Assembly (NCBI GenBank): GCA_021203905.1
Contig: JAJQAG010000004.1
Coordinates: 1-64,000 of the forward strand
Source of the DNA: Coprobacillus sp.
Lineage (GTDB): Bacteria > Bacillota_I > Bacilli_A > RFN20 > CAG-826
Reading direction: 5' to 3'
Length of the DNA stretch: 64,000 bases
Shown here: piece by piece, positions 6,715 to 49,916 of the stretch
How the letters are laid out: each line of letters begins with the position of its first letter
Position numbering within the stretch: the first letter of the stretch is position 1
Made by a program: the position numbers and the translations under genes
Notes under the pieces: generated by a model
The model's input: only the letters and a program-made list of their open reading frames with translations
Database searches by the model: none
Told to the model about the DNA's origin: nothing

Positions 6715-9018
6715 ATGAATTATTACATTTTCATCATTGCGTTTGCACTTTGCATTGGAATATATTTCATTCTTAGATTCGCTACCAAACACTCTCCTCA
6801 AGCTGGCGTCTGGGGACTCAGAGGTCTCGCTCTTGGTGTTGGTGTGATTTTTCTTGTAAGATTCTTCTCTAGTGGTGGTTCTATTTTTACCTCCATTTTT
6901 GATCTCACTCTCAATAAGTATGATCCAGAATTTGAGAATGCCACAGTCGCCGCTTTTACCCTCGTCAGTGTGTGGCTTGAGTTTATGACTGTGGGCTTTG
7001 TCCTTCTCTACCCCTTCTTTAATAAGCAACCTCTATTTCGTAACTACGCAAAGACTGTGGGACTTGTCTCCTCAATCTTAAATATCATCTTCCTTAGTGA
7101 AACATCCTATTCCTTCTCCCTCTCTTACGACGTCAATCTCACTAACATCATGATGCCGATAGAAGTGGGACTTGTTTTCTTTATGTGTCTCCTTCCCTAT
7201 TTTGAGAGCAAGGATTCCTATCGTATCTCTAAGCATGAAGGACTCGATATGTTAGCGATGGCCTTTATCGTCATCCTCGTCTCTCTTCCCCCATACTTCT
7301 TTGGAACCTGTTGGGGAGAGGTTTCTACCTCAGGAGTCAGTGGATTTGGATTCTATCATCGTATTTATCTCTATTTTATGATTGCGGTCTTTGTTATCCT
7401 GTTCCTCTTATTAAGAGGAAGAGGTCGAGAATTCAATAGGATGATGTTCCTTTATGTCATCCTGTCAGTCTTAGTGACCCTCTTATATGACTTTGACTTT
7501 GAGAGCTTCACCTATCCTGCATTATGGCCACTTTCTCTCTCTGTTCTCACCCTCTTCTTAGTGGCAATTTGCCTGGTTGTAAGATGTAAGTGGCTCTTTA
7601 ACTTTACTTTCTTTATTGGAGCGTTTGCCGCTTTCATGTCCCTCTTCTTCCCAGACTACGGGAGTAAGATGGCTTTCTTTGATGCGAGTGTCGTGAGTTG
7701 GTGGTTCAGCCGAATCTTTGCCTTTGTCGTTCCGATGTTAATGGCGATTGTGGGAATCTATGAGAGACCTCGTTTCCGTCAATACCTTGTCTCTTTAGGA
7801 ATCTATGTCATCTACTTTATCGTCATCGATTTCTTAGGAGCATTCCTTACTAACTGGTCTAGTTCAGTGGATTACTTCTATACTCAATCTGACTATATCG
7901 TTTCTATTCTCGGTACTTGGGGAATGAATCTCAAATATGACACAGTGTGGGCCTTCACACTGGGCAGTTATGAAATTAATATTTATCCTGTTTTCCAGGT
8001 TCTCTATATGCTGGCCTTCGCTATTGGCACACTGGTGTTATGGTTCATCTATGTGTGGATCTTCTCGGTGGTGAGACAATACCGAGTCCTAGAAGTGAGG
8101 AACCACAAGATGCGCGTAGAAGAATACGCTTTAAAACAGGAATACCATGAAGGGAGGTTAAGGGAAATTATGAATGAAGAAACAAAAGATAAACTCGTGG
8201 TGAAGAACTTCTATAAGAAGTATGGACATAGTAAGGTCTACGCAGTGGAAGATGCTACTTTTACGGTCGAGGCGGGTAAGATTATCGGCTTCCTCGGTCA
8301 TAATGGCGCGGGTAAATCCACAATTATCAAGTGCATCGTGGGCATGCAACCCGCTAGTAGTGGACAGGTCGAAGTCAATGGTTACGATGTCTTTAAACAA
8401 CCAGTCCAAGCCAAGCAACAAATAGGCTTTGTCCCTGATCACTATGCTTTATATGAAAAACTCTCTGGAAGAGATTATATCAACTATGTCGCGGACTTAT
8501 ATGAAGTCCCGAAAGAAGAGAGAGACGCCACTCTTAAAGAGCTCACACATAATCTCTCAATGGAAGAATCTATTGATTCTCCCATCTCTACCTATTCTCA
8601 CGGCATGAAGCAAAAGATTGCCATTATGAGTGCGCTTATCCACAACCCTAAATTATGGATACTTGATGAACCCTTAACAGGACTTGATCCGACCTCTGTC
8701 TATGAAGTGAAAGAGTGTATGAAAGCCCACGCCGCTAAGGGTAATATTGTCTTCTTCTCCTCTCACCTTATTGATGTCGCGGAGAAGCTTTGTGATGAGA
8801 TTATCATCATTAAGGAGGGACACATCCTTATCCATGAGAATCTTGGTAAGATTCAAAAAGAACATAAAGACCTCGAGAAGTTCTATCTCGATATGATGAA
8901 CACTCCGATTAAGAGGAGTAATGCGAAAGAAGAAGTCCCCGAACAAGAAGCGGAAAGCTACTTCTTTAAGACCAAAGAGAAAAAACACAAGAAAGGAGAA
9001 GAAGCGAGAGCTGAATAA
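6715..9018 (+). CDS. Fusion of an N-terminal polytopic membrane domain (YwaF-like?) and a C-terminal ABC ATPase
   Basis: About 460 aa of hydrophobic helices, then LGHNGAGKST (Walker A), YSHGMKQ signature, LWILDEPLTGLDP. Confidence 0.8.
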   Translation: MNYYIFIIAFALCIGIYFILRFATKHSPQAGVWGLRGLALGVGVIFLVRFFSSGGSIFTSIFDLTLNKYDPEFENATVAAFTLVSVWLEFMTVGFVLLYPFFNKQPLFRNYAKTVGLVSSILNIIFLSETSYSFSLSYDVNLTNIMMPIEVGLVFFMCLLPYFESKDSYRISKHEGLDMLAMAFIVILVSLPPYFFGTCWGEVSTSGVSGFGFYHRIYLYFMIAVFVILFLLLRGRGREFNRMMFLYVILSVLVTLLYDFDFESFTYPALWPLSLSVLTLFLVAICLVVRCKWLFNFTFFIGAFAAFMSLFFPDYGSKMAFFDASVVSWWFSRIFAFVVPMLMAIVGIYERPRFRQYLVSLGIYVIYFIVIDFLGAFLTNWSSSVDYFYTQSDYIVSILGTWGMNLKYDTVWAFTLGSYEINIYPVFQVLYMLAFAIGTLVLWFIYVWIFSVVRQYRVLEVRNHKMRVEEYALKQEYHEGRLREIMNEETKDKLVVKNFYKKYGHSKVYAVEDATFTVEAGKIIGFLGHNGAGKSTIIKCIVGMQPASSGQVEVNGYDVFKQPVQAKQQIGFVPDHYALYEKLSGRDYINYVADLYEVPKEERDATLKELTHNLSMEESIDSPISTYSHGMKQKIAIMSALIHNPKLWILDEPLTGLDPTSVYEVKECMKAHAAKGNIVFFSSHLIDVAEKLCDEIIIIKEGHILIHENLGKIQKEHKDLEKFYLDMMNTPIKRSNAKEEVPEQEAESYFFKTKEKKHKKGEEARAE

Positions 9019-11430: not shown

Positions 11431-14400
11431 ATGAAAAAGTACAAGATTCTCACATTTACAGGATTGCTTGCCGTTTCTCTTGGTTGTCTCACTGGCTGTG
11501 GTCTTTTTGATGACACAAAAGGTGATAGTGGGAAAACCAACAACAACAATAACAACAACACGAGCAGTGATGAGAAAACCGGTTTTGAGATTCCTGTAGA
11601 TGACACGAAAGGATACGAAGAACCAGAGGATGTTGAAGATAGTGGTAACACTGGTGAAACCAGTCATGGTGATTTCACTGTGAAACTCAATGGTCTCAAC
11701 TCTTGGTATTATCCTGATGATGAAATTGATTGGAGTGGGGTGAGTCTCACTCTTACGTATGATGATTTAACCGAAGTTCAACTTCGTAATCTCGAATTTG
11801 ATGTCGATGAAGCGGAGAATGAAGAGACAGAAGCGATCATTAACACAGCTGGACTATACGCTCAAAGTCAAAGAGACACCGATATGGTGGAAGGTACCTA
11901 CGCTATTTCTTATGCTTTTACCTACGATGATGTCCAATACTCTAGTTATATTCTTATTGTCACTGTGACCTATCTCCCAACATCAGTTTATGATGTCTTC
12001 TCTTTTGAGGATCCCCAATTAAAGATTACTTATGAGCAGAACCTCCAAAGAGTGGAATACGATATGGATAATAGTGCGGAGAATCAGTTCTATGTGGCAC
12101 CAGATTACTATGAAGTGGGAGATGATAACCCCTTCACTTTCCAACCTGAGCTCTGGTTATATAATAAGACTACAAGTCAAACTGAGATCCCCTCTTCTTA
12201 TCATGTGAATGAAAGTGTCTATCTTGGTGAGAGCACTGAAGTGCCTAATCTTAAACTTGATTTAGATAATAATCAATATGTCTCTGTCTCTGGATTTGAC
12301 TTCCAGTTCACCGAAGAAGCTATTGGTAAGGTCTTTACCATTGTCGTCGAGCTTGTAGGATTTAACCAAGATATTGCTAGTAATCCTATCCAACCTATTA
12401 CCTTTACTGTCAAAGTCCAAGATGGATGGAACGTCTATGACGCTCTCGATTTAGGAAGATTAAATCTTGTTCCTGATGACTTTGATGACGGATGGTCTGT
12501 CTATTCCTCGGGTACCAACGCTGATACAAGCTATGACCACATGGGGCGAGAATACTTTGAATCTGCTGGTCCAGGTGGCTATCGTATTTGGCCACATCGA
12601 TACTACACCCTAACATTACCTGATGGGTCAACCGAAACTTGTAGTCATGGCGGTAATGAATATGTCGCTTATGATGAAGTTCCTGAAGGAGCGGATCCCG
12701 CGAACTACGAATTACATGTTTCCCTTACCTATGCTGGACCTTGGTGTCAAACGGATTGGATGACTGCTCCCCATGACAATTCTTATGAGACAAGCGGTAA
12801 TGCTTGCGAATATTGGCACTACATGGTCAAACCTGATGTCTATTGGAAGAACTTCCTTGAAGAGAAGGGAAGAGAAAACTTACAACCTGTAAATGGTATG
12901 TTTATTCATAGTGATCTTATGATCACTCAAGACGTTATTCCACCAGAATTCTTTGTTACCGCTGATGAGGCTTACTATTTAGGACCTGAAGTTGGCGCTA
13001 GCATCGTGGATATGATTGGTGATCTAGGTTCATTTGATAGTATGGTTGAAACTCTCGTTGATTCTGTTCTTGGATTCCCCACTGAGGGTGATCCCTATGT
13101 CTACGATGAAATGGTGGGCGCGGTTCGTGATCGCAGCTATATCTATAACCATCACATGAATCACGACTTCCTCTTTGATGGTAATCTCTTTAAGATTAAT
13201 GGCTCCTCCCTTAAGTGGGGCATGAATAATGTCTTCTATGCACAAATCAATGGTTATTACCCCACAAGTGCTAAATTCTCTATTCAAGGTAACTCCTGTT
13301 GGTTTGTCTTTGATCAAAATAGAAATCTTAATAATGCAGATGATATCTTTGATTGCACCTTCAAGAATGTGGAGTTTATGGGTAACTCTAAGGGTTATGT
13401 TGAAAGTGGAAGTAATAACTCTTCCTCTGAATCCGCTCTTACAGATAGTGAAAGAGCTAGTGGTTCTCTCTCCTTCTTAATGTCGCACTCCTCCCAAGTC
13501 TTTGTCGATAATGTCATTGTCAAGAATGCGAATATTGCTTTCTGGTCTCAGACTAATCGTAGCGGTTACACTCCATTAAAGATTACTAACTCTAAAGTCT
13601 ACGATTGTTATACCACTGCCTTCTATGTTTGGTTAGGAGGTGTGGTAGAAGTCAGCCACTCCGAGTTTAAGAGATTCGGTGGCACCGCCTCTATCCTTAT
13701 TAGTGGAGCGTGCTCTTCCTCTAACTCCACTCGTCACCCCTATGATACCGAAAATAAGTATTCTGGACTCTCCTTTAGCGATGATTGCATTATCGATTGC
13801 CCAGTCGGAGGAACAGAATCTTGGTTCTCCTTAAATAACGCCAGCACACTAGTGACCCAAGTTAAAGGTTATGATACCTATCTCAATGCTCTTGGTAAGT
13901 CTCTTGTCGATAGTGATGATAAGATGAATATCACCTCCCTCTTTATGGATGAGATGTATATCTTAAGTGGCACTCATGATCTCTTTACAGGAATCACCAC
14001 TTCGACAGGTGGTAGCTATGCGATTAACTCTAACGACACTGGCGAAGATACAGACGACACAAAAACCATGCAATACTATATCGAGAATTATGCCGTAATG
14101 GAGGATAATACAGTGTTGGGGGGATTAATTGGTAGTAAGTATTCCGTTCCTCTCTTTATCACTAATACCGGTAAGATCTTAGGATGGTATGATAGTAGTA
14201 AAATCACCAGCTCTAGTTATCGGCTGGATGATATTATAGCGTCAGATGCGCAAAGTAGCGCTGTGAAAGCGAGCACTCTATCATCAGAAGATACCGAGTG
14301 CTTAATAGTGCTCCCTTGCTTACAAGATGGGTTAAGTGTCAATAGTTGGAGTACGTTTGAGTTGATTCTCGATCTCGTGGCTGCGGTATCAGATTATTCA

Positions 14401-14454
14401 TTCTGTGATACCTATCTTGGTATTGTCCTCCATCTTTATGACTACGCCTCATAA
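11431..14454 (+). CDS. Large surface lipoprotein, paralog 1 (Ig-like N-terminal region, probable beta-helix C-terminal region)
   Basis: Lipobox LAVSLGCLTGC, Asn/Ser-rich linker, repetitive beta-rich sequence. Confidence 0.8.
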   Translation: MKKYKILTFTGLLAVSLGCLTGCGLFDDTKGDSGKTNNNNNNNTSSDEKTGFEIPVDDTKGYEEPEDVEDSGNTGETSHGDFTVKLNGLNSWYYPDDEIDWSGVSLTLTYDDLTEVQLRNLEFDVDEAENEETEAIINTAGLYAQSQRDTDMVEGTYAISYAFTYDDVQYSSYILIVTVTYLPTSVYDVFSFEDPQLKITYEQNLQRVEYDMDNSAENQFYVAPDYYEVGDDNPFTFQPELWLYNKTTSQTEIPSSYHVNESVYLGESTEVPNLKLDLDNNQYVSVSGFDFQFTEEAIGKVFTIVVELVGFNQDIASNPIQPITFTVKVQDGWNVYDALDLGRLNLVPDDFDDGWSVYSSGTNADTSYDHMGREYFESAGPGGYRIWPHRYYTLTLPDGSTETCSHGGNEYVAYDEVPEGADPANYELHVSLTYAGPWCQTDWMTAPHDNSYETSGNACEYWHYMVKPDVYWKNFLEEKGRENLQPVNGMFIHSDLMITQDVIPPEFFVTADEAYYLGPEVGASIVDMIGDLGSFDSMVETLVDSVLGFPTEGDPYVYDEMVGAVRDRSYIYNHHMNHDFLFDGNLFKINGSSLKWGMNNVFYAQINGYYPTSAKFSIQGNSCWFVFDQNRNLNNADDIFDCTFKNVEFMGNSKGYVESGSNNSSSESALTDSERASGSLSFLMSHSSQVFVDNVIVKNANIAFWSQTNRSGYTPLKITNSKVYDCYTTAFYVWLGGVVEVSHSEFKRFGGTASILISGACSSSNSTRHPYDTENKYSGLSFSDDCIIDCPVGGTESWFSLNNASTLVTQVKGYDTYLNALGKSLVDSDDKMNITSLFMDEMYILSGTHDLFTGITTSTGGSYAINSNDTGEDTDDTKTMQYYIENYAVMEDNTVLGGLIGSKYSVPLFITNTGKILGWYDSSKITSSSYRLDDIIASDAQSSAVKASTLSSEDTECLIVLPCLQDGLSVNSWSTFELILDLVAAVSDYSFCDTYLGIVLHLYDYAS

Positions 14455-25961: not shown

Positions 25962-26375
25962 GTGAAAAACATGAAACATTGGTATCAAAAACTCAATATT
26001 GACTATCAAACTTCATTTTGGACCGGAATCATTGTGATTGTGGCCTTTCTTTTTACTATCCCCCTTCTTATTAGTGGTCAATGTGAATATTCCCTCGGTC
26101 TTTTACTCGGAGGTTTGATTGGATCTTTGTCCTATTTTGGCTTTGGTCTTTTTGATAAACCCGCCACTGTAAAAGCGGGAAATGTTGGAACAGTAACTAT
26201 CCTTATAGTGAAATATGTCTTATTTCTCGGTTTAGGATTTCTCTTTGGTTTTCTCTACTATGGAAGAGACATCCATATCTTTGAACCATTCACCTTTATT
26301 GGAGGCTATTTTGTCTCCGTCGTGGTTTTGGTGGTGATTCACCTCGTTAATAGATACAAGGAGAAGAGAGCATGA
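25962..26375 (+). CDS. AtpI-like membrane protein (start could be the ATG at 25971)
   Basis: Small polytopic protein directly upstream of and overlapping atpB. Confidence 0.5.
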   Translation: MKNMKHWYQKLNIDYQTSFWTGIIVIVAFLFTIPLLISGQCEYSLGLLLGGLIGSLSYFGFGLFDKPATVKAGNVGTVTILIVKYVLFLGLGFLFGFLYYGRDIHIFEPFTFIGGYFVSVVVLVVIHLVNRYKEKRA

Positions 26376-27151
26376 TCCCCGTAATCTACGCGAGCGATGC
26401 TTTTAACGAGAGAATCAGCCACTTCATGGACTTTGATATCTCAGGAGAGGTCTATTCTTCTCTTATTGTCATGGGGATTATTGTGATTTTGGCCATCATC
26501 GTGGGGATTCAAGCTCATTTCCACAACCCCTTAAAGAAGACTAAAGGCTTACTCTTTCTTGCGGAGACGGGAGTGAACTTCTTTGATGGACAAGTGGAGA
26601 AGATGATGGGTCCAAAGTTTAAGGGCTTTGGAGGTTTTGTTCTTGCGATAGCGGTCTATCTCTTTTTAGCCTTTATCTTTGGAATGACGGGCTTACCCTC
26701 TCCCATGACCGATTTAGCGGTCCCCCTTTCTTTAGGGCTGACCACTTTCTTAATGATTCACCTTACTTCCGTGCACTTTACTCATTGGAAGTACTTTAAG
26801 CGATATGTTGATCCCAACCCAATCTTTATGCCGATTAACTTAGTGAGTATGTGGTCACCACTTATCTCTCTCTCCCTTCGTTTATTCGGTAATGCGATTG
26901 CGGGTTGGGTCTTAATGACAATTTTATATAGTTCTCTTGAGTCATTATCGGCGATGATCTTTACCGGACTCGCCGCGGGGTTATCGAGCATTTGGATTGC
27001 TCCGATTATCACCCCAATACTTCATTGCTATTTTGATCTCTTTGCGGGCTTTATCCAGACCACAGTGTTTATCTTCTTCTCTATGATTCTCATTGGTCAA
27101 GAAGGCCCACAAGATATAGAACAAGAATTATCTTTGAGAGGAGGAAATTGA
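26372..27151 (+). CDS. atpB: F-type ATP synthase subunit a
   Basis: SLRLFGNAIAGWVL with the conserved Arg; operon position. Confidence 0.95.
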   Translation: MIPVIYASDAFNERISHFMDFDISGEVYSSLIVMGIIVILAIIVGIQAHFHNPLKKTKGLLFLAETGVNFFDGQVEKMMGPKFKGFGGFVLAIAVYLFLAFIFGMTGLPSPMTDLAVPLSLGLTTFLMIHLTSVHFTHWKYFKRYVDPNPIFMPINLVSMWSPLISLSLRLFGNAIAGWVLMTILYSSLESLSAMIFTGLAAGLSSIWIAPIITPILHCYFDLFAGFIQTTVFIFFSMILIGQEGPQDIEQELSLRGGN

Positions 27152-27152
27152 T

Positions 27153-27368
27153 ATGGAAGCAGCATGGGCCGCGGCAATTGTCATGTTTGTTGCGCTTGGC
27201 TCCGCAATCGGTGAAGCCTGGATCAGCACCAGTGCCATTAAAGCGATGTCCCGCAACCCCGAGATGTATTCTAACCTTAGAACCACACTCATTCTCGGTT
27301 GCGGTCTTACCGAGACCACAGCAATCTATTCGCTTGTTGTCGCTATTTTAATTATTTTCGTACTCTAG
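27153..27368 (+). CDS. atpE: F-type ATP synthase subunit c
   Basis: Two-helix hairpin with RNPE loop and ion-site LTETTAIY; operon position. Confidence 0.96.
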   Translation: MEAAWAAAIVMFVALGSAIGEAWISTSAIKAMSRNPEMYSNLRTTLILGCGLTETTAIYSLVVAILIIFVL

Positions 27369-27398: not shown

Positions 27399-27966
27399 AT
27401 GATCTTTCCAACATTATTAGACGATATTATGGATGCACCAGGAGGTATCACTGATGAACTCAACAGTGAAACATTCCTCGAGAAGATGATTCCCAACTTC
27501 TGGTCTTTCCTTGTGCAATTTCTCGCTCTTGTCATCCTTATTGTGGTCGTTATTTGTGTGGCTTATAAACCCTTAAAGAAGATGCTAAAGAAGAGACAAG
27601 ATCATATTGAAGAGAACATCCAAAGTGCGGAAGAGAATAACAGAATTAGTCAAATGAATAAGACGGAAAGTGAACAACTTATCATTGAGAGTAAAAAAGA
27701 AGCAAATGACATTATTATCGATGCCAGAGAAAAAGCCATTGTGGAAGCTCACCTGATTGAAGAGGAGAGCAAAGAAAACATCAAGAAGATGAAAGAAGTT
27801 GCCGAAGAAGAGATTAAGCAAAAAGAGGAAGAAAGCCGTCAAGCCATTCATGATGAGATGGTGGATGTCGCTCTTAATGCCTCTAGTGCTCTTTTAAAGC
27901 GCAATATCTCCGATGACGATAACAAGCGCTTGGTGAAAGACTTCATAGAGGAGATGGAGAATAAGG

Positions 27967-27974
<8 letters not shown>
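27399..27974 (+). CDS. atpF: F-type ATP synthase subunit b
   Basis: Single TM plus long charged coiled-coil; operon position. Confidence 0.92.
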
Positions 27975-30014
<2,040 letters not shown>

Positions 30015-30019
30015 GGATT

Positions 30020-32283
<2,264 letters not shown>

Positions 32284-32291
32284 TACAAAAT

Positions 32292-32693
32292 ATGGCAAAA
32301 ATTCATTTAGAAATTTACACTCCTAATAAAAAGTATCTCACTACTGATGTGGACTTTATCTCCTTTCAGAGTGAGAACTTTCGTTTGGGAATTCTTCCCC
32401 GACATCAGGAGATGATTTCTAATGTTGTTCCTTGCGAACTCATCCTTCGTAATGAAACAGAGGTCTTTCATTATGCCCTCTCTAGCGGAATGGTTCATGT
32501 CGATAAAGAGAAGACCACAATCCTTGTGGATAGTATAGAAGCTCCAGGTGAGATTGATGTTGCTAGCGCTACTATAGCTCGTGATGAGGCTCTCACGCTT
32601 CTTCATTCCTGTGATGATGATAAGAAGCGCGAAAGTATACAAAAAGACCTCGATTTAGCGAATTTCCGCTTAAAAGTGGCCTCAAATAAATAA
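32292..32693 (+). CDS. atpC: F-type ATP synthase subunit epsilon
   Basis: ATP-synt_DE N-terminal beta domain LGILPRHQEM; operon position. Confidence 0.92.
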   Translation: MAKIHLEIYTPNKKYLTTDVDFISFQSENFRLGILPRHQEMISNVVPCELILRNETEVFHYALSSGMVHVDKEKTTILVDSIEAPGEIDVASATIARDEALTLLHSCDDDKKRESIQKDLDLANFRLKVASNK

Positions 32694-32695
32694 AA

Positions 32696-33478
32696 TTAGT
32701 GGTAATTTTCTAAGAAAGTTGTAATTCCTTGAGCGGTTACTTGTTCAAGGTTTTCTTTTACTCCATCCGCAGTGATATAGCAAAGAGTGTTCCCCTTTAC
32801 TTCTACTCCCTCTATTTCTAATTGCTCAAGGAGTGGATCTTCACATTTATTAGTGTCCACAAATAAGGTGGGAGTTTCATAATTTGTGACAATGTCAAAA
32901 ACTTGTTTATAGAGACTACATGAATCAAGAGAGGATGAGTCATAAGTGAATAGAATAAAATCACTGGAAACATCTTGTTTAAAGAGAGTGTAACTCTCTA
33001 GGAGCGAGACATAATACATACTTGAGAAAGTCGCGTATTTATTTATACTACTTTTAAATGAAGTTTTATACATTAAACGCGAGGCGTCTATAGTGGTGTA
33101 TAACCGTTTATCTTTGACAGTAAAAAGTGCGGGAGTGGTGACGTAATTTGAAAAGATATCTTCGTTATAATCAATCAAATACTGGTAATCTGAGCCAAAT
33201 TCATATCTATATAGAGAGTGTGGGTATTTCTCTAATACTTCCTCCATCACTGGCATCGCTTCGTGGCAGTGACTACAACCCTCGCTATAGATAAAAATTG
33301 TCATCTGATTACCGCTATCAATGAGATTAATTAGCTCTGTCGCCTTGACATCAATGTAGTAGCTTTCTTTTGAGGCGATATCATAGTTATAGATGTCGTG
33401 TATCGCTTGCTCATCACTACATGATGAGAGAAGTAGAGGGGCTATTAATATAAGAGAGAGAATTCGATTCTTTTTCAT
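32696..33478 (-). CDS. Thioredoxin-like lipoprotein
   Basis: Lipobox LLLSSC, YSEGCSHCHEAMPVMEEVL; start set at the ATG 33478. Confidence 0.75.
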   Translation of the reverse strand: MKKNRILSLILIAPLLLSSCSDEQAIHDIYNYDIASKESYYIDVKATELINLIDSGNQMTIFIYSEGCSHCHEAMPVMEEVLEKYPHSLYRYEFGSDYQYLIDYNEDIFSNYVTTPALFTVKDKRLYTTIDASRLMYKTSFKSSINKYATFSSMYYVSLLESYTLFKQDVSSDFILFTYDSSSLDSCSLYKQVFDIVTNYETPTLFVDTNKCEDPLLEQLEIEGVEVKGNTLCYITADGVKENLEQVTAQGITTFLENYH

Positions 33479-33485
33479 CACAAAT

Positions 33486-33491
33486 ATTATA
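33486..33491 (-). promoter_or_regulatory. -10 box of thioredoxin-like lipoprotein, leaderless arrangement
   Basis: TATAAT on the minus strand, last base 8 nt from the ATG at 33478. Confidence 0.55.
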
Positions 33492-33654
33492 ATTCTGCAT
33501 AGTTTTAATTTCATTTGTTTTGATTTTTGAATAGAGAATGCCGCTATAACAGGTATAAGAATTATTTAATTCTCTTTATAAGCTCTTTTTTGTATAATAA
33601 AGGGGAAGTGATAATAAATTATCTATAATTTACCTATCAAGGAGTATTTAAAGT

Positions 33655-34242: not shown

Positions 34243-34761
34243 ATGATCCATGTGATTTTATATCAACCTGAGAAACCCTTAAACACGGGTAATATTATGA
34301 GAACATGTTCAGTGACTGGATGTATCCTTCATATCATTGGACCTCTCTCTTTTTCTTTAGATGATAAAGCGCTTAAGAGAGCGGGTCTTGATTACCTCTC
34401 TAACCTAAAGTACTACTATTACGATAGTTACGAGGATTTTCTTGATGAGCACCACGACAAGGATATTTACTATGTCACCCGCTACTCAAATCAAGTCTAT
34501 AGTGAGTGTGATTTCTCTAAAGTAGAAGAAGATTACTACTTCATGTTTGGACGAGAGAGCAGTGGAATTCCTCATGAAATTTTAAGACAACATGAAGATC
34601 GACTCCTTCGTATTCCAATGAAAATAAATGCAAGAAGTTTGAATTTATCAAACAGTGTCGCTATTATTATCTATGAAGCTCTTCGCCAACAAGGTTTTCA
34701 TGAGTTAGCGACTCATGAAACTATAAAAGGAGAAAACTTCCTAAAAGAAGAAAAGAAATGA
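34243..34761 (+). CDS. trmL: tRNA (cytidine(34)-2'-O)-methyltransferase
   Basis: YQPEKPLNTGNIMRTC, FGRESSGIP, ARSLNLSNSVAIIIYEALRQ. Confidence 0.95.
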   Translation: MIHVILYQPEKPLNTGNIMRTCSVTGCILHIIGPLSFSLDDKALKRAGLDYLSNLKYYYYDSYEDFLDEHHDKDIYYVTRYSNQVYSECDFSKVEEDYYFMFGRESSGIPHEILRQHEDRLLRIPMKINARSLNLSNSVAIIIYEALRQQGFHELATHETIKGENFLKEEKK

Positions 34762-35243
34762 AATTCAAAGCTTTAACTATTCTTCCTCTTGTTGGACTCT
34801 TTGTTCTCTCTAGTTGTGGAGCGGAGTTTTATTTTTATATTGAGAGAAACCCTAATGGTGGACATCTTATTGATATCACAGGAGAAGAGGTCTACGAGAG
34901 AGCAATTACTAATAACGAGACCCTCGTTGTCCTTATTGGAGAGAGTGTTGGTTGTTCAACCTGCACGACAGCGATAAAGAACATTGGTGATTACTGCGCT
35001 CTTGAATCTGTTGATATCTACTTCTATGAAGTAAGTGGTGTGACAGAAGAGGATTATACCTATCTTTACGATGCGACGATATACATGTTAGGAGAGGACA
35101 ACTATAATGCTCTCCCTGCTTGGGGTGAAGAATTATCCACTCCATATGTCTACATCTTTTATGAACAAACACCTTTCCCTGTTGGAACTACCGATTACAT
35201 TGGTTACTTCCGTGATCATTTCATTCTTGTGGATCCAAGTTAA
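34758..35243 (+). CDS. Lipoprotein with thioredoxin-like CxxC
   Basis: Lipobox LFVLSSC; VGCSTCTTA; STPYVYIF cis-Pro-like. Confidence 0.65.
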   Translation: MKFKALTILPLVGLFVLSSCGAEFYFYIERNPNGGHLIDITGEEVYERAITNNETLVVLIGESVGCSTCTTAIKNIGDYCALESVDIYFYEVSGVTEEDYTYLYDATIYMLGEDNYNALPAWGEELSTPYVYIFYEQTPFPVGTTDYIGYFRDHFILVDPS

Positions 35244-48620: not shown

Positions 48621-49916
48621 ATGAAAAAGTTTTCTAAACTTATCATAAGTTTATCTTGTGTCTGTATTTGCTCTCTCTCTGGTTGCTCTGGGGCAACAGT
48701 TTATGGAAGTCCCAAAAAGACAAGAGAGCTTTCCTATGAAGAGGAAGGTAGTGAGGCTTATTTAGAGGTCTTAAGTGCTCTTGATACTTTTGGAATGAAG
48801 TTTGCGTCTTGTTGCTATCAAGGGACAAGCACCAATGTCGCCATCTCTCCTCTCTCTTTATACTCCGCTTTAGCGTTAGCCGCGTGTTGTGCTTCATCTC
48901 AGACGAGAGACGAGATTCTCTCCGCTTTAGGAGTGGACTACTCTACTCTTGTCTCAGGTTATGAGATTTTATATAACGATGTCACAGAGAAAACCTATTC
49001 TAATAAAGGAGATCTAAGATCAGAGCTAGACCTTACTAATTCCCTTTGGTTACAAAAGGATCTTGAGGTTAATAAATCCACAGTGAAAGAGTTATCAAAT
49101 AACTTCTACACTTATACCCAAGGAGTGGACTTTAATGGTAATAATACCAGTGCGAATAATGAGATTACCAAGTTTATTAAGAAACACACTCATAGCTTAA
49201 TTGAGAGAGACTTTGACTTTGATGTCTCCACTTTATTTGTGCTCTTAAATACTTTGTATTTAAAAGATGTCTGGAGAGAAGAGGGAAATGATATCTCTTC
49301 CTATGGAAAAAAGACCTTTACTCAAGGGGATGGCACTACAGTGAGTGTTCCTCTTTACTATCGAAATTACATTACAGGAAAGCCATATGAAGGCACAAAC
49401 TTCACGAGTTTCTATGCTTCTACCTATAGCGGTTATCGTCTCACCTTTATTAAACCTAATGAGGGCTACACAGTGAGTGAAATCTATAGTGAAGAAACCT
49501 TTAATGAGGCGATGAATGCCACTTATATCAGGCAAGACGATACCCTTATGGAAAGATACAACACCAGAAGTATCTTCCCCGAATTCAGTGCGAGTTATGA
49601 TAGTGATGTCAGCGGGATCCTAAAAAGTGAGTTTGGGATTAATGATCTCTTTAGTGAAACAAACTGTGATATGTCTAATCTCACTGATAGTCATGTCTAC
49701 TGCTCTAAAGTAGAGCATGTCACTCAACTTGAAGTCACTAAGAAAGGGATTGAAGGAAGTGCAGTCTCTATCCTTGACATGGCGGGTAGCGGTGCTACTG
49801 TTGGTGAATATACAGAGGTCTACTTTGACTTTATCCTTGATCATGCCTTTATGTATGTCTTAACCGCTATAAATGGAGAACCACTCTTTATGGGAGTGGT
49901 TAATACATTATCTTAA
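48621..49916 (+). CDS. Serpin-family lipoprotein
   Basis: Lipobox ICSLSGC, NVAISPLSLYSALALAA, C-term HAFMYVLTAINGEPLFMGVV. Confidence 0.9.
   Translation: MKKFSKLIISLSCVCICSLSGCSGATVYGSPKKTRELSYEEEGSEAYLEVLSALDTFGMKFASCCYQGTSTNVAISPLSLYSALALAACCASSQTRDEILSALGVDYSTLVSGYEILYNDVTEKTYSNKGDLRSELDLTNSLWLQKDLEVNKSTVKELSNNFYTYTQGVDFNGNNTSANNEITKFIKKHTHSLIERDFDFDVSTLFVLLNTLYLKDVWREEGNDISSYGKKTFTQGDGTTVSVPLYYRNYITGKPYEGTNFTSFYASTYSGYRLTFIKPNEGYTVSEIYSEETFNEAMNATYIRQDDTLMERYNTRSIFPEFSASYDSDVSGILKSEFGINDLFSETNCDMSNLTDSHVYCSKVEHVTQLEVTKKGIEGSAVSILDMAGSGATVGEYTEVYFDFILDHAFMYVLTAINGEPLFMGVVNTLS

What the first reader, a model, noticed from the sequence alone, without database searches (positions are those of the whole stretch)
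27153..27368. ATP synthase c subunit carries a two-carboxylate, Na+-type ion site
Numbering from Met1: E21 in helix 1 and E54-T55-T56-A57-I58-Y59 in helix 2. E21 lies 13 residues before the loop Arg (R34 in RNPE) and 33 before E54. These spacings equal Q32..R45 and Q32..E65 in the Ilyobacter tartaricus Na+ c-ring as I recall it, so E21 replaces Q32, T55 replaces S66 and Y59 matches Y70. A Glu/Glu pair of this kind was described for the Fusobacterium nucleatum Na+ c-ring. The helix-1 packing motif is A14-x-G16-x-A18-x-G20-x-A22 rather than GxGxGxG, which could change ring stoichiometry. Inference: the enzyme may be Na+-coupled.
Basis: partly seen in the sequence, partly recalled or inferred. 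Interest (0 to 1): 0.7.

Follow-up and report, generated by a model that had tools for sequence, protein, structure and literature searches.

The report
Sodium-type rotor of a bacterial ATPase
A tiny-genome gut-type bacterium carries an ATP synthase rotor whose ion pocket matches a known sodium-binding type built from two acidic residues; all its relatives share it, so the pocket itself is ordinary, but here the enzyme may be one of the cell's few ways to charge its membrane.

Summary
Window 27153-27368 (+) encodes a 71-aa F-type c subunit inside a complete a-c-b-delta-alpha-gamma-beta-epsilon operon. It aligns without gaps to the solved Na+ rotors of Fusobacterium nucleatum and Ilyobacter tartaricus with an offset of exactly 11: E21=E32/Q32, R34=R45, E54=E65, T55=S66, T56=T67, Y59=Y70. 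Its best matches by sequence in the PDB are the Na+ rings. Helix-1 Glu is near-universal in the window's order, while the rest of the class mostly has Gln with the same Ser/Thr and Tyr; the trait is lineage-wide. A caution: the Burkholderia N-type ring has E/E/T/Y yet behaves as H+-selective; it has Met where this protein keeps T56. Less expected: the 97%-complete, 790-kb genome has no match to Rnf/NQR, decarboxylase, complex I/Mrp, ion-pumping PPase, V-ATPase or three Na+/H+ antiporter families. I infer an ATP-driven Na+ exporter. The helix-1 glycine motif is degraded across the family (often VxPxAxG), so the ring may not be c11. New member of a known kind.

The parts
25962..26375 (+). small 137-aa membrane protein at the head of the operon, in the position of AtpI; no Pfam or NCBIfam match
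   Evidence: AtpI by position and hydrophobicity only
26372..27151 (+). atpB, F-ATPase subunit a, stator arginine R170 in SLRLFGN
27153..27368 (+). atpE, F-ATPase subunit c, 71 aa, the finding
   Evidence: TIGR01260 54.7 bits, cut-off 43.95
27192..27218 (+). helix-1 packing motif A14-x-G16-x-A18-x-G20-E21-A22 in place of GxGxGxGxG
27213..27215 (+). codon of E21, second carboxylate (F. nucleatum Glu32)
27312..27320 (+). codons of E54, T55, T56 (Glu65, Ser66, Thr67 of F. nucleatum)
27327..27329 (+). codon of Y59 (Tyr70)
27399..27974 (+). atpF, subunit b
27967..28503 (+). atpH, subunit delta (by position and sequence)
28503..30014 (+). atpA, subunit alpha
30020..30865 (+). atpG, subunit gamma (by position and sequence)
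30880..32283 (+). atpD, subunit beta (by position and sequence)
32292..32693 (+). atpC, subunit epsilon

Best explanation
The c subunit forms the rotor ring of an ordinary F1Fo-ATPase whose ion sites are of the F. nucleatum two-carboxylate Na+ type. Between neighbouring subunits Na+ is held by E54, E21, the T55 hydroxyl, the L52 backbone carbonyl and a water tied to T56, with Y59 locking E54. E21 stays protonated, acts like the Gln of other Na+ rings, and its proton is not carried across. Since the genome has no detected redox, decarboxylation or pyrophosphate ion pump, the enzyme most likely runs chiefly as an ATP hydrolase that exports Na+ and charges the membrane in a fermentative cell. Shown: gene, alignment, conservation, absence of the listed pump families. 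Inferred: Na+ coupling, E21 protonation, direction, fermentative life.
For: Ungapped alignment of the whole site to the F. nucleatum and I. tartaricus rings, with Na+ rings as the best PDB hits; A. woodii c2 also has Thr at the Ser66 position. Every first-shell and water ligand published for F. nucleatum (Glu32, Val63 O, Glu65, Ser66, water on Thr67, Tyr70; PMC3692424) has a matching residue. Conservation across the order. In the class, Glu and Gln interchange at helix 1 while S/T and Tyr stay, as expected if protonated Glu equals Gln (PMC3692424). No Rnf/NQR, OadB, complex I/Mrp or ion-pumping PPase, and a single PF00137 match (so no V-ATPase), in a 97%-complete genome. Four P-type ATPases read as Cu, heavy-metal, Mg and one of unknown ion.
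Against: No biochemistry. The B. pseudomallei N-type ring has Glu30/Glu61/Thr62/Tyr66 and was predicted to be Na+-coupled, yet labelled like an H+ ring (PMC5376962). Two-carboxylate sites occur in H+ enzymes of S. pneumoniae and M. tuberculosis (PMC3692424). No Na+/H+ antiporter or Na+ symporter family that I tested was found in this genome, so there is no independent sign of a Na+ cycle. SSF, MATE and other Na+-linked families were not tested, and missing genes could lie in the unassembled 3%.
Confidence: 0.6

Rival explanations
1. The ring is H+-coupled despite the Na+-type residues: both glutamates are protonated, E54 carries the proton, and E21 only shapes its pKa.
For: B. pseudomallei N-type ring with E/E/T/Y behaves as H+-selective, and S. 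pneumoniae and M. tuberculosis have two carboxylates (PMC5376962, PMC3692424). All c-rings characterised so far are intrinsically H+-selective to some degree.
Against: The N-type ring has Met63 where this protein has T56, the water-holding Thr of Na+ rings; the full ligand set is present here and best PDB hits are Na+ rings.
Confidence: 0.18
2. The enzyme translocates both H+ and Na+ depending on pH and Na+, as reported for Methanosarcina acetivorans.
For: M. acetivorans has a predicted two-glutamate site and mixed coupling (PMC3692424). Small changes next to the site, such as Thr for Ser66, could shift selectivity.
Against: The binding set matches F. nucleatum, where only Na+ is moved under physiological conditions (PMC3692424).
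Confidence: 0.12
3. Na+-coupled, but working mainly as an ATP synthase driven by a Na+ gradient from a pump not recognised here (for example product/Na+ symport or an unknown carrier).
For: 31 of 56 relatives carry RnfD/NqrB-type genes and 10 of 56 a decarboxylase beta subunit, so the ancestral enzyme may have made ATP from a Na+ gradient.
Against: No match to the usual Na+ or H+ primary pumps in this genome, nor Rnf in any of the four genomes of the genus, three of which are only 72-81% complete.
Confidence: 0.1

Closest known systems
Fusobacterium nucleatum two-carboxylate Na+ c11 ring (PDB 3zk1/3zk2, PMC3692424)
   Same: Glu in helix 1 and Glu, Ser/Thr, Thr, Tyr in helix 2 at identical spacing; ungapped alignment
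   Different: Thr for Ser66, Leu for Val63; glycine motif AxGxAxGxA; no Rnf or decarboxylase pump detected in this genome
Ilyobacter tartaricus Na+ c11 ring (1yce)
   Same: same spacing and Ser/Thr66, Thr67, Tyr70
   Different: Gln32 instead of Glu; intact GxGxGxGxG
Acetobacterium woodii Na+ ring (4bem)
   Same: c2 has the same E-T-T-x-I-Y stretch; best fold match
   Different: Gln in helix 1; hetero-oligomeric ring with a two-hairpin c1
Burkholderia pseudomallei N-type ATPase c17 ring (PMC5376962)
   Same: two glutamates, Thr and Tyr; altered glycine motif AxGxAxAxG
   Different: Met at the Thr67 position and H+-selective labelling; different operon type; NCBIfam N-type ('alternate F1F0') c model far below cut-off here (36.4 vs 130.85 bits)

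Membership tests
F-type ATP synthase subunit c | c-family profile and helical hairpin with RxP loop | tested here: met
   TIGR01260 54.7 bits over cut-off 43.95; PF00137 E 3.8e-16; AF2 hairpin
F-type ATP synthase subunit c | encoded in an atp operon | tested here: met
   a, b, alpha and epsilon confirmed by profile; delta, gamma, beta by position and sequence
Two-carboxylate Na+ c-ring (F. nucleatum type) | Glu at the Gln32 position plus Glu65 | tested here: met
   E21 and E54, ungapped
Two-carboxylate Na+ c-ring (F. nucleatum type) | Ser/Thr66, Thr67 and Tyr70 | tested here: met
   T55, T56, Y59
Two-carboxylate Na+ c-ring (F. nucleatum type) | glycine-rich GxGxGxGxG helix 1 shared by known c11 Na+ rings | tested here: not met
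   AxGxAxGxA here, VxPxAxG common in the family; a shared feature of known members, not shown to be required for Na+ binding (PMC3692424)
Two-carboxylate Na+ c-ring (F. nucleatum type) | Na+ protects against DCCD/NCD-4 and stimulates ATPase | not testable with these tools
   needs purified enzyme
N-type ATPase | distinct N-type c subunit family and operon | tested here: not met
   TIGR03322 36.4 bits against cut-off 130.85; standard F-type gene order

The most novel reading that the evidence does not exclude
A reduced-genome lineage of gut Bacilli uses its F-ATPase as its only general ion pump, exporting Na+, with a two-carboxylate Na+ ring that is not c11 because the glycine motif has been lost across the family; this would break the pattern that all known F-type Na+ rings have eleven subunits.
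Probability: 0.25. Interest if true: 0.55.

Novelty: new member of a known kind. Interest (0 to 1): 0.33.

Why it matters
It extends the two-carboxylate Na+-type site to a whole uncultured order of gut and rumen Bacilli, gives natural Glu/Gln swaps for testing the claim that the second carboxylate behaves like Gln, and offers Na+-type c subunits with a degraded glycine motif, which makes the open question whether F-type Na+ rings must be c11 directly testable.

Tried and rejected
N-type membership rejected. 'E21 is a one-off or sequencing oddity' rejected by conservation. 'Rnf or a decarboxylase supplies a Na+ gradient' rejected for this genome within detection limits, although common in relatives. 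A look for Na+ symporters in 224 kb of contig C3 (window plus 160 kb) found few multi-span proteins: ABC components, TraX, SecDF; one search failed on a file-reading error and was rerun. An early script translated minus-strand loci on the wrong strand and was corrected. I considered a link between glycine-motif loss and Rnf loss; by eye both states occur with and without Rnf, and I did not test it statistically. A paper on RF39/RFN20 (PMC7301438) treats Rnf in Tenericutes as a proton pump; a text search there found no mention of sodium.

Full report
What is there. Window 27153-27368 (+) is an ORF of 71 codons plus TAG with a GGAGG ribosome-binding sequence. It lies between subunit a (26372-27151) and subunit b (27399-27974) of a standard F-type operon that continues with delta, alpha, gamma, beta and epsilon. 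NCBIfam calls it ATP synthase F0 subunit C above the curated cut-off (54.7 against 43.95 bits). Subunit a keeps the stator arginine (R170 in SLRLFGN).

The ion site. In a sequence search of the PDB the top four hits are A. woodii c1 (E 1.2e-15), F. nucleatum (3.8e-11), A. woodii c2 (9.2e-11) and I. tartaricus (5.6e-10), all from Na+ rings. The F. nucleatum and I. tartaricus alignments run from residue 4 to 69 without a gap, offset 11. Hence E21=Glu/Gln32, R34=Arg45, L52=Val63, E54=Glu65, T55=Ser66, T56=Thr67, Y59=Tyr70. The crystal structure of the F. nucleatum ring assigns Na+ to Glu32, Val63 O, Glu65, Ser66 and a water on Thr67 and Ala64 O, with Tyr70 and Ser66 donating to Glu65 (PMC3692424). 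Every side chain has its counterpart here. Ser/Thr66 and Gln/Glu32 were already listed as Na+ ligands in 2008 (PMC2359735). AlphaFold2 predicts a confident hairpin (pLDDT 93.7) whose PDB matches include 4bem, 3zk1 and 1yce, but also H+ rings, with Foldseek E-values no better than 1.7e-3 for so small a fold; fold alone cannot tell Na+ from H+.

How common. The window lies in contig C3 of a 790,382-base, 5-contig genome, 97% complete. Named relatives are uncultured Bacilli, Bacillales and Erysipelotrichaceae genomes, many with rumen or gut sample names, one of them Candidatus Scatoplasma merdavium. In the order (families f1-f8) the helix-1 residue is Glu in 117 of 119 distinct sequences; of the two exceptions one is a V-type-like sequence (VGTQY) and one a second c copy with Met. 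Sixty-seven of these came from a scan that required ETT-IY, so they say nothing about helix 2. Outside the order, 36 of 44 sequences have Gln, six Glu. The F-type copies keep Ser/Thr and Tyr whichever residue helix 1 has.

Caution on the ion. The B. pseudomallei N-type ring has Glu30, Glu61, Thr62 and Tyr66, was predicted to use Na+, and behaved as H+-selective (PMC5376962). It differs from this protein in Met63 where T56 stands here. Some paralogues in the order have Val at this position (ETV, for instance L189, and ESV in L191), and these may be H+ forms. That this position decides is my inference, not a demonstrated rule.

Genome context. The genome has no match to NqrB/RnfD, OAD beta, complex I/Mrp antiporter subunits, ion-pumping pyrophosphatase, CPA-type Na+/H+ exchangers, NhaC, NhaA, SNF or SDF symporters; each search rang in several of the 14 control genomes. 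Only one PF00137 match exists, so no V-ATPase was found. Of 56 relatives 31 have RnfD/NqrB-type genes, 15 of the 33 in the same family, but none of the four in the genus; three of those four are only 72-81% complete. Four P-type ATPases occur: two heavy-metal pumps (one of copper type), one Mg2+ and one with only a general P-type match. A SecDF-like protein (L211) suggests an ion gradient is consumed. The simplest reading is that the F-ATPase hydrolyses ATP to pump Na+ out. This is inference.

Ring size. The helix-1 glycines are replaced: AxGxAxGxA here, VxPxAxG in many relatives, intact in several other families of the order. Glycine-motif changes raise ring size in I. tartaricus without necessarily ending Na+ coupling (PMC3692424), alanines accompany c13 in B. 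pseudofirmus (PMC2914638), and AxGxAxAxG accompanies c17 in B. pseudomallei (PMC5376962). Whether Na+ F-rings must be c11 was left open in PMC3692424; this family is a good place to test it.

Verdict. Observation confirmed; interpretation plausible and partly supported; site type already known; modest interest from the genome context and the glycine motif.

Noticed in passing
window 6715-9018 and L208:8506-10893: ABC-transporter ATPase domains fused behind a multi-span membrane part (TMEM164-family match in the window copy), each followed by a multi-span protein with no Pfam match; two such pairs about 66 kb apart.
   Followed up: partly
window 48621-49916: A serpin-family protease inhibitor gene (Pfam PF00079, E 1.6e-44) in this small bacterial genome.
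   Followed up: no
window 25962-26375: 137-aa membrane protein at the AtpI position with no Pfam or NCBIfam match; may be a diverged AtpI.
   Followed up: partly
L189, L191 (second c copies in G029 and G037), L192: c subunits with Glu in helix 1 but Val at the Thr67 position and a largely lost glycine motif; G029 and G037 have two F-type c genes, possibly two ATPases with different ions.
   Followed up: no
L206:762-3224: 820-aa P-type ATPase that matches only the general P-type model over its cut-off; substrate ion unknown.
   Followed up: partly
window 11431-14454: 1007-aa protein with no Pfam match.
   Followed up: no
window 32696-33514 and 34758-35243: Two proteins with lipoprotein-like N termini and thioredoxin-like Cys pairs (CSHC, CSTC) lie just after the atp operon.
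   Followed up: no
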